A stretch of DNA of 5,328 nucleotides from Dehalococcoidia bacterium (GTDB taxonomy: Bacteria > Chloroflexota > Dehalococcoidia > JACPQF01): the NCBI GenBank assembly GCA_030650265.1, contig JAUSEJ010000225.1:1-5328 (forward strand). The letters run 5' to 3'. The position numbers and the translations under genes were made by a program. Below are positions 1,113 to 1,958 of the stretch, piece after piece. How positions within the stretch are numbered: position 1 is the stretch's first letter; each line of letters opens with the position of its first letter. The notes beneath the pieces are model-generated. The model was not told where the DNA came from. It worked only from the letters and a program-made list of their open reading frames with translations, and did no database searches.

Positions 1113-1328
1113 CTAGTCCCCACGACAGTCAAGCGCCTTTTGCTCGAGCCCAAGGGACGTGAACTCGTCGCGATAATCTCTTAGAGCCCCAGCCCAGTCC
1201 TGACGAAGTTTCTTGCGAGCCCTGCGCCCTCCTTTTCGCAAGAGGAACTCAACGAAGTCGGCTACCTCTCGCTGCGGACCGGGTGGCAACTCGTTGACCA
1301 TATCTCTTATCTCTTCCACGGTTTTCAT
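1113..1328 (-). CDS. DUF2281-like VapB-type antitoxin, orphan
   Basis: This is a 71-residue protein beginning MKTVEEIRDMVNELP. Its first half (residues 1-32, ending ADFVEFLLRK) has the helical 'L..LP...Q.EV.DFVEFL' pattern of DUF2281 proteins. A basic linker (GGRRARKK) follows, then a tail, DWAGALRDYRDEFTSLGLEQKAL, that is typical of antitoxins paired with PIN toxins. ATG 1328 is preferred over the adjacent GTG 1331 because GAAGG lies 7 bases upstream of the ATG. In intact loci such a protein neutralises a VapC ribonuclease and represses its own operon. Here only a C-terminal scrap of the toxin follows, so it is an orphan that may survive as a regulator, as protection against related toxins, or as a gene not yet lost. 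A TATAAT box and a pair of direct repeats lie upstream. Confidence 0.75.
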   Translation of the reverse strand: MKTVEEIRDMVNELPPGPQREVADFVEFLLRKGGRRARKKLRQDWAGALRDYRDEFTSLGLEQKALDCRGD

Positions 1329-1344
1329 CACAGTACCTTCTACT

Positions 1345-1393: not shown

Positions 1394-1595
1394 ACTCAGA
1401 ATGGCGCTCAAACATAGAACTTTGCCAGCTTTCCAACATCATCGCTCTCGAAACAAGAAGCGTCTTCAGAGTGATTACCTGATCGGGCGCCGCGGGTTCG
1501 AGGGCGGCGTAGAGGTCGGGGAAGCAGCCGATCCTTGCCCCTTCCACCAGGCTGGTGGCGATGTTTCGCTCGTAGGCGTAAGGTTCCAGAAGAGC
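1389..1595 (-). pseudogene. Unrecognised coding-like tail in frame after the ArsR stop
   Basis: Immediately after the repressor's TAG (1598-1596), the same frame stays open for 68 codons to TAA 1391-1389. The first 40 or so codons have strongly GC-rich third positions, like the real genes nearby. It reads as a plausible soluble helical polypeptide (for example YERNIATSLVEGARIGCFPD, later ALEPAAPDQVITLK). There is no Met until its last third and no Shine-Dalgarno site, so it has no convincing start of its own. Two readings are possible: the 5'-truncated or nonsense-mutated remains of a second gene that once began near the ATG GCT ATG AAG just before the TAG, or an extension of the repressor cut off by the TAG. 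I do not recognise the family. Confidence 0.4.
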
Positions 1596-1889
1596 CTACT
1601 TCATAGCCATGGTGGTTGTTTCCCCGTGAGGCAAGGCCTTCAGGATCTCCAAGACACGTTGATCCTTGATACCATAGTAAATATTCTTGCCGGAACGACG
1701 CGGATACACGTATCCGCACCATCGCAGTCAGGTGAGATGGGTGGAAACCCTGCCTTGCGGCAAGCCTCCCAGTAGCTCCATGAGTTCACCCACGTTCTTC
1801 TCGCCAGCCAGTAGATGTCTCAGGATCTCGAGCCGAATGGGATGACCCAGATCGCGAAAGAGCTTGGCATCGGAAGTGTCTTCTGCCAT
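1596..1889 (-). CDS. ArsR/SmtB (CmtR-like) metal-sensing repressor with in-frame TGA at the first metal-ligand Cys position
   Basis: The frame from ATG 1889 to TAG 1598-1596 has 97 codons and one internal stop, TGA at codon 54 (1730-1728). The translation shows a winged helix: helix LFRDLGHPIRLEILRHLL (10-27), NVGELMELL (32-40), recognition helix QGRVSTHLT-x-LRWCGYV (45-60), and wing PRRSGKNIYYGI (63-74). In CmtR-type Cd/Pb sensors the equivalent segment is LSCLRGCG, whose two cysteines bind metal. Here residue 54 is TGA and the second cysteine, C58, is kept. Family members dissociate from operator DNA on binding metal. No cysteine follows C58, so a third CmtR ligand (Cys102) has no match before the TAG. 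GAGG lies 8 bases before the ATG, and a strong promoter sits upstream. Read normally, translation ends after 53 residues and lacks half the DNA-binding unit. With selenocysteine insertion it gives a complete 97-residue protein. A nonsense mutation of a TGC/TGT codon is the alternative. Confidence 0.75.
1694..1730 (-). promoter_or_regulatory. SECIS-like hairpin directly downstream of the in-frame TGA
   Basis: Numbering bases after the TGA (+1 = 1727), +11 to +17 (GCGGATA) pair perfectly with +22 to +28 (TATCCGC) around the 4-base loop CGUG at +18 to +21. The stem can extend down to +5/+34 using U-G, G-U, G-C, U-G, A-U and G-U pairs. Bacterial SECIS elements recognised by SelB are hairpins just after UGA, with the apical loop about 16-37 nt downstream and a G among its first two loop bases. 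Both conditions hold here, and the E. coli fdhF loop lies at almost the same distance. There is no bulged U as in fdhF. Function is inferred. Confidence 0.45.
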
Positions 1890-1929
1890 GGCTTCACCCT
1901 CGAATGGAAAGAACTAATATCTTGATGTA

Positions 1930-1958
1930 AGGATACGACGGGCCACGTCCGGTGTCAA
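1930..1958 (-). promoter_or_regulatory. Sigma70-type promoter for the ArsR-family gene
   Basis: TTGACA (1958-1953), a 17-base spacer and TATCCT (1935-1930) read on the minus strand. The -35 is perfect and the -10 matches 4 of 6. The predicted start near 1923 leaves a leader of about 34 bases containing the GAGG ribosome-binding site. The -35 overlaps the TGA stop of the upstream monooxygenase gene, so the promoter lies tight against that gene. No convincing ArsR-type inverted repeat was found, although an AT-rich stretch follows the -10. Confidence 0.65.

What the first reader, a model, noticed from the sequence alone, without database searches (positions are those of the whole stretch)
1596..1889. 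Candidate selenocysteine-containing ArsR/CmtR-type metal sensor
Seen: a complete 97-codon winged-helix frame with its own promoter and ribosome-binding site is broken only by TGA, and the TGA falls on the first Cys of the metal-binding CxxxC (T-x-LRWC). Known: UGA replacing a functional Cys is the classic signature of bacterial selenoproteins. Inferred: selenocysteine would serve as a metal(loid) or redox ligand in a transcriptional repressor, a role I do not know to be established for this family. A recent TGC/TGT to TGA nonsense mutation is the main rival and is supported by nearby gene decay.
Basis: partly seen in the sequence, partly recalled or inferred. Interest (0 to 1): 0.88.

Follow-up and report, generated by a model that had tools for sequence, protein, structure and literature searches.

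The report
Selenocysteine-containing ArsR metal-sensor repressor
A small bacterial gene switch of the kind that senses toxic metals appears to carry the rare amino acid selenocysteine at its metal-binding spot, a role for selenium in a DNA-binding regulator that we did not find described.

Summary
In detail: window 1596-1889 (minus strand) is a 97-codon ArsR winged-helix frame with one in-frame TGA (codon 54), where relatives carry the first Cys of CxxxC (CmtR Cys57). Selenocysteine is strongly supported. A Chloroflexi genome (G001) holds an ortholog with the same TGA, 86% identical, still under selection beyond it (dN/dS about 0.18). Eighteen further database proteins (20 with these two) stop at exactly this residue; their stop codons were not seen. 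The hairpin after the TGA fits the bacterial SECIS model and differs between the two loci by one compensatory pair in its core. G001 has tRNA-Sec, SelA, SelB and a TGA-bearing SelD. A merA-like gene lies near 27 of 48 Cys relatives; all 48 keep a third Cys that both Sec forms lack. In G001 a NifU-like gene and a borderline SaoD follow; SaoD is named for the selenocysteine-assisted organometallic system. Best reading: a Sec54/Cys58 soft-metal (perhaps mercury) repressor; the ligand is inferred. The window copy has lost the NifU-like gene and most of SaoD, and its own genome is not held. A 2026 catalogue of 119 prokaryotic selenoprotein families lists no ArsR protein; its nearest entry is a 'putative regulatory protein, FmdB family'.

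The parts
1596..1889 (-). ArsR-family repressor CDS, 97 codons plus TAG, one in-frame TGA
1728..1730 (-). UGA codon 54, proposed selenocysteine; aligns with CmtR Cys57
   Evidence: same codon is TGA in L001
1716..1718 (-). Cys58 codon, the only Cys of the protein; aligns with CmtR Cys61
1696..1721 (-). Core of bSECIS-like hairpin (11 pairs counting G-U, loop CGUG, loop starts 17 nt after the UGA)
1930..1958 (-). Sigma-70-type promoter match TTGACA-17-TATCCT; same spacing as L001 TTGACT-17-TATCTT
1917..1928 (-). Operator-like imperfect palindrome 1 nt after the -10; L001 has the perfect ATATCCGGATAT at the same spacing
   Evidence: chance mean of the window match alone is 1.69, so only the shared position is suggestive
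1897..1901 (-). GAGGG ribosome-binding site, 7 nt before the ATG
   Evidence: read
1467..1577 (-). Remnant of SaoD (residues 74-110, 97% identical to L001 SaoD); the NifU-like gene and the SaoD front are absent

Best explanation
The gene encodes a selenocysteine-containing ArsR/SmtB repressor. UGA54 is decoded as Sec with the help of the hairpin just downstream of it (supported by comparison, not by protein chemistry). Sec54 sits near the end of the predicted recognition helix and Cys58 just after it. Together they would form a two-ligand Sec/Cys site in place of the three-Cys site of CmtR-like relatives. Binding of a soft metal, most likely Hg(II) or an organomercurial, would distort the recognition helix and release the operator (inferred). 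In L001 the repressor would control itself and the following NifU-like and SaoD genes (inferred from gene order and from inverted repeats before both). In the window the sensor gene remains but those two genes are deleted or truncated. My shares: selenoprotein about 0.95; metal sensing by the Sec/Cys pair about 0.65; mercury specifically about 0.45.
For: Same TGA in an independent locus, L001, with 86% identity over residues 1-87. After the TGA dN 0.137 and dS 0.77, before it dN 0.035 and dS 0.44; 14 of the 22 post-TGA differences are at third positions. 20 non-redundant proteins, counting the window's own and L001's, stop at exactly this residue (20 of 28 hits; sequences); 18 form one clade (100/97) and two lie elsewhere. 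Hairpin: 8 (L001) and 9 (window) Watson-Crick pairs within an uninterrupted helix of 11 and 13 pairs counting G-U, against at most 7 Watson-Crick pairs, mostly 3-4, in 48 Cys loci; random synonymous recoding reaches this in 64 (L001) and 34 (window) of 2000. In the 11-pair core the one difference between the loci is A-U against G-C, changed on both sides. tRNA-Sec, SelA, SelB and TGA-bearing SelD in G001. MerA-like gene near 27 of 48 Cys relatives (20 at 40% identity or more), MerA (TIGR02053) the best model for the 7 that I chose to test; merA divergent from the regulator on two mycobacterial plasmids, with merB next to merA on one. All 48 Cys forms have a further Cys after CxxxC, 45 of them exactly 42 residues on; both Sec forms have none. 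SaoD two genes downstream in L001. Model of the readthrough protein: winged helix, block mean pLDDT above 90 around the site, helix 45-57.
Against: DNA was seen for only two TGA loci; for the other 18 proteins the stop codon type is not known. The generic bSECIS constraints are also met by 20 of 48 Cys loci, so only the long stem and the one covariation discriminate, and folding energy alone does not (226 of 2000 synonymous recodings fold as well for the window, 45 of 2000 for L001; shuffle z -1.85 and -1.14). Constraint after the TGA is weaker than before it (dN/dS about 0.18 against 0.08). The window's own genome is not held. No MerA or MerB was found in the two Sec loci, and a MerB search of G001 was empty, though its controls were silent too. 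SaoD in L001 is borderline (just over, just under the cut-off). Nearest solved folds are SqrR (sulfide-responsive) and HlyU, CmtR ranks 41st. The window copy has lost the two genes that follow it in L001.
Confidence: 0.75

Rival explanations
1. Sec-containing redox or reactive-sulfur/selenium sensor: Sec54 and Cys58 form a selenenyl-sulfide or per-selenide bridge that releases the operator, controlling a DsrE-type and a NifU-like sulfur-handling pair.
For: Top structural matches are the sulfide-responsive SqrR and HlyU; BigR scores close to CmtR among NCBIfam models (47.2 and 48.5 bits, both far below cut-off); the L001 neighbours are NifU_N and DsrE-like/SaoD; the third metal-site Cys is lost.
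Against: The CxxxC position is that of CmtR, and Cys relatives are often near merA-like genes; fold ranking within ArsR proteins says little about the inducer.
Confidence: 0.25
2. The gene family is a true selenoprotein, but the window copy is on the way out: with the NifU-like gene and SaoD gone it regulates only itself.
For: SaoD tail remnant and no NifU match in the window; L001 keeps both genes.
Against: Promoter spacing, RBS, hairpin and frame are all intact in the window copy.
Confidence: 0.3
3. Recent nonsense mutation in an ordinary Cys-type ArsR gene (pseudogene).
For: Nearby decay; TGA serves as a true stop in the window (nitronate monooxygenase) and in L001 (NifU-like gene).
Against: Same TGA in L001 with constrained sequence beyond it, 20 proteins stopping at one residue, covarying hairpin, Sec machinery in G001.
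Confidence: 0.03
4. UGA is read as another amino acid (Cys or Trp) by a suppressor tRNA rather than as Sec.
For: The position is Cys in relatives.
Against: tRNA-Sec and SelA/B/D are present in G001; TGA is used as an ordinary stop next door. No search for suppressor tRNAs was made.
Confidence: 0.02

Closest known systems
CmtR (Cd/Pb sensor, M. tuberculosis, PDB 2jsc)
   Same: ArsR winged helix; TGA and Cys58 align with Cys57 and Cys61
   Different: Sec for the first Cys, no third C-terminal Cys; 48.5 bits against the CmtR cut-off of 150
merA-linked ArsR repressors of Chloroflexota and mycobacterial plasmids
   Same: The best Cys relatives in the class of G001 are 51-61% identical; CxxxC at the same place, as LRWCG in many, CLSDCG in the two plasmid ones
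   Different: They have Cys, a third Cys and often a merA-like gene near by; the Sec form has a NifU-like gene and SaoD
Selenocysteine-assisted organometallic (SAO) system
   Same: SaoD lies two genes downstream in L001 (170.2 bits, cut-off 169); selenium chemistry with organometals (review)
   Different: None of the other four L001 neighbours scanned with NCBIfam is a Sao protein; no ArsR selenoprotein is listed in the review table
TsoR, an ArsR regulator whose NCBIfam name points to the three-selenoprotein (Tso) operon
   Same: ArsR family, 44.1 bits
   Different: Below its cut-off of 115
SqrR/BigR sulfur sensors
   Same: Same fold
   Different: No Cys of SqrR or BigR aligns with Sec54 or Cys58

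Membership tests
Selenoprotein | In-frame UGA at a Cys position in homologs, sequence conserved beyond it | tested here: met
Selenoprotein | TGA-bearing homologs in independent genomes | tested here: met
   one by DNA; 18 more only by truncation at the same residue, stop codon unseen
Selenoprotein | bSECIS: loop 3-9 nt, G in its first two positions, spacing 16-37, MFE at most -7.5 (constraints read in PMC13188914) | tested here: met
   2 of 2 TGA loci; also 20 of 48 Cys loci, so weak alone (the script applied the 4-bp minimum of the upper stem, not its 16-bp maximum; the uninterrupted stems are 11 and 13); one compensatory pair
Selenoprotein | Sec machinery in the host genome | tested here: inconclusive
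   complete in G001, which holds the ortholog; the window's genome is not held
Selenoprotein | Selenium in the protein | not testable with these tools
   needs 75Se labelling or mass spectrometry
ArsR/SmtB family | HTH_5 / metalloregulator HMM over its cut-off and winged-helix fold | tested here: met
CmtR (NF047906) | Over the curated cut-off | tested here: not met
   48.5 against 150 bits
CmtR (NF047906) | Three-thiolate site Cys57/Cys61/Cys102 (recalled) | tested here: not met
   Sec54 and Cys58 only, no third Cys
SAO system | SaoD | tested here: inconclusive
   L001: 170.2 against 169 as a full protein but 166.8 in the genome search, so borderline; only its tail in the window
SAO system | SaoL/MerB-like lyase in the genome | tested here: inconclusive
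   no MerB match in G001, controls silent
SAO system | SaoB, SaoC, SaoP, SaoT, SaoX | not tested
   no genome-wide search was made for them

The most novel reading that the evidence does not exclude
The repressor reads two inputs through one residue. Sec54 is the mercury ligand, and it is also the point where translation fails if selenium is short. Mercury could derepress the genes both by binding Sec54 and by tying up selenide, so that UGA54 terminates and only a 53-residue fragment without the wing is made. This would be a transcription factor whose very synthesis depends on the element its ligand attacks.
Probability: 0.2. Interest if true: 0.92.

Novelty: new variant of a known kind. Interest (0 to 1): 0.85.

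Why it matters
Many catalogued selenoproteins resemble thiol oxidoreductases, and the review takes most of the uncharacterised ones to serve redox functions. A Sec residue in the recognition helix of a repressor would put selenium into gene regulation directly, with Sec as a likely metal ligand of a sensor. It adds a possible regulator next to SaoD, whose system is proposed for organometal chemistry and for which I saw no regulator named in the review passages that I read. It also shows a family that sits in databases as 52-53-residue stubs; such stubs are easily found, and the idea can be tested by one heterologous expression experiment.

Tried and rejected
Pseudogene reading: rejected on the independent TGA locus, the selection beyond the TGA and the 20 equal stops. 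Suppressor reading: set aside as needless given the Sec machinery in G001 and TGA stops next door; no search for suppressor tRNAs was made. Attempts to get more TGA DNA failed: viral contigs (none of 10 pattern matches confirmed); class of G001 (393 genomes; among the matches listed only G001 has TGA, and the list is cut); order (1 genome, G001 itself); phylum (400 genomes; that profile ends before the TGA, so stops were not scored); a second class draw (285 genomes, apparently a subset of the first, since only handles of the first draw are listed); two other classes (41 and 110 genomes; in 71 nothing matched at all at E 1e-24); plasmids by tblastn (393 records, none at 60% identity or more). 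A first tree was discarded because gapped alignment rows had been loaded as sequences, so only 2 TGA rows were left in it; one search stopped on a grouping error after the corrected tree was built, and one search is the tree used. Rfam gave nothing on the window. The papers cited for SAO and Tso (PMC9879109, PMC12013261) are not held, so I could not check whether they mention an ArsR selenoprotein. Paper search returned only unrelated SAO/SAOD papers. In the counts on 48 Cys loci the duplicates L011, L052, L053 (and L084, L085 once fetched) were dropped, the plasmid regulators do not fit the sequence pattern used or were dropped, and fetched ArsR loci without the pattern (for example L032, L058) were not counted. 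Of the 28 hits, 8 were left out of the truncated set (P0030, P0032-P0038).

Full report
What is there. On the minus strand, 1889-1596, the window encodes a 97-codon ArsR protein whose only flaw is TGA at codon 54, in HLT*LRWCG. Read with Cys at 54 it passes Pfam HTH_5 and NCBIfam HTH_metalloreg, and aligns with M. tuberculosis CmtR so that codon 54 falls on Cys57 and Cys58 on Cys61 (positions counted by me). AlphaFold2 on a 22-row alignment gives a winged helix (mean pLDDT 81.6; block means above 90 for residues 21-80; termini low); helix 45-57 is the recognition helix by ArsR anatomy, so a stop at 54 would cut it and remove the wing. A TTGACA-17-TATCCT promoter match and a GAGGG site precede it.

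An independent locus. L001, a groundwater Chloroflexi contig, carries an ortholog with the same TGA. Between the two, the 53 codons before the TGA have dN 0.035 and dS 0.44, and 33 codons after it dN 0.137 and dS 0.77. The sequence after the UGA has therefore been under selection as protein, more loosely than the part before. The promoters have the same 17-nt spacing. In L001 a perfect palindrome ATATCCGGATAT follows the -10 by one base and an inverted repeat ATATCCG-N6-CGGATAT precedes the next gene; the window has a degenerate form at the same spacing, which alone is no better than chance.

How widespread. Three protein searches gave 20 non-redundant proteins, the window's and L001's included, that stop exactly before the Cys position (P0001, P0007, P0013-P0029, P0031; sequences). 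In one search they are 20 of 28 hits; of the others, P0030 and P0032 stop elsewhere, and P0033-P0038 are not cut at this residue (P0034 has the Cys). That search admits only proteins of 29-93 residues, so it favours truncated forms and says nothing about how many Cys forms exist; and for 18 of the 20 I have no DNA, so the stop codon is unseen. On a 50-column tree of 20 truncated and 59 Cys forms, 18 truncated forms are one clade (100/97), and P0029 with P0031 lie apart beside a Cys form; a single group was found in 0% of 200 bootstrap trees. Two origins are likely, but the well-supported branches alone do not force more than one, the tree has few columns and the bootstrap had not settled. Among sampled genomes the TGA form is rare: only G001 among the listed matches from 393 genomes of its class, and among the 36 matches listed from a 400-genome phylum draw no other had a frame as short as that of G001 (68 residues).

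Selenium machinery. The window's own genome is not held. G001, which holds L001, has SelB (348 bits with its neighbouring piece, cut-off 242), tRNA-Sec (69.8 bits, gathering 47; ARAGORN anticodon TCA), SelA (563 bits) and SelD (410 bits) with one in-frame TGA, at GAG*ACK.

The hairpin. Both TGA loci fold into a hairpin with loop CGUG starting 17 nt after the UGA, inside the published bSECIS constraints (read in section 5 of PMC13188914). The constraints are weak: 20 of 48 Cys loci also meet them. Stronger is the stem: 8 (L001) and 9 (window) Watson-Crick pairs within an uninterrupted helix of 11 and 13 pairs counting G-U, against at most 7 Watson-Crick pairs, mostly 3-4, in the 48 Cys loci; random synonymous recodings reach this in 64 and 34 of 2000. 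Folding energy alone is unremarkable (45 of 2000 for L001 and 226 of 2000 for the window). In the 11-pair core the only difference between the loci is one pair, A-U against G-C, changed on both sides, both at third codon positions. With two related loci this is one covariation event.

What it may sense. Of 48 CxxxC relatives with Cys, fetched with at most about 1.6 kb on each side, 27 have a MerA-like gene (E 1e-10 or better), 20 at 40% identity or more and 21 none in the stretch held. The less similar ones could be other disulfide reductases; for the 7 that I tested (one, L084, being a second copy of the L054 place) the best NCBIfam model is MerA, two over the cut-off, the others incomplete within the locus. 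On two mycobacterial plasmids a relative (52.6% and 51.3% identical) is divergent from merA, and on one merB follows merA. All 48 have a further Cys after CxxxC, in 45 of them exactly 42 residues on, close to Cys102 of CmtR (recalled); both Sec forms have none. The site has thus changed from three thiolates to Sec plus Cys, which would suit two-coordinate soft metals such as mercury (recalled chemistry). In L001 the following genes are a NifU_N protein and SaoD (170.2 bits, cut-off 169; 166.8 in the genome search, under the cut-off). SaoD had no match in the 8 genomes with Cys forms that were searched. Against mercury: no MerA or MerB in the two Sec loci, an empty but uncontrolled MerB search of G001, and nearest folds among sulfur-responsive proteins. 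I therefore hold the metal reading at about 0.65 and mercury at about 0.45, with a redox or reactive-sulfur sensor as main rival.

The window copy. Only residues 74-110 of SaoD remain (1467-1577, 97% identical), and the NifU-like gene has no match. The sensor frame, promoter match and hairpin are intact. The copy may now control only itself or a distant target.

Novelty. The 2026 review of prokaryotic selenoproteins (PMC13188914; I read its outline and abstract, section 5, parts 1-2 of section 7, and passages around search terms) tabulates 119 families or subfamilies. The words ArsR and repressor do not occur in its main text; the nearest entry is 'Putative regulatory protein, FmdB family'. 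In the deep-Sep paper (PMC12013277, term search only) the words ArsR, transcription, repressor and regulator do not occur. Full-text searches listed no paper whose title or shown start of abstract describes such a protein; two lists were cut (15 of 31, 12 of 29), and apart from the review and deep-Sep the listed papers were not opened. No model of NCBIfam release 20.0 (June 2026) other than the general metalloregulator family reached its cut-off for the protein. The two Haft papers on SAO and Tso are not held, so a mention there is not excluded.

Noticed in passing
window 1467-1577 (-): 37-codon SaoD tail left by an internal deletion; the stretch is 94% identical to L001 in nucleotides, higher than the ArsR stretch (83%), which suggests a recent event.
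   Followed up: partly
window 1113-1331 (-): DUF2281 protein; a 71-base stretch here is 72% identical to L001 downstream of SaoD, so synteny seems to continue past the lost genes.
   Followed up: no
P0029, P0031 (database proteins, no locus): A second, separate group of ArsR proteins that stop at the same residue, nearer to ordinary Cys forms: perhaps an independent Cys-to-Sec change.
   Followed up: partly
L001 6390-6791: NifU_N-like scaffold between the Sec repressor and SaoD; well below the NifU/IscU cut-offs (101 against 187.9 bits for TIGR03419), so an unusual member.
   Followed up: no
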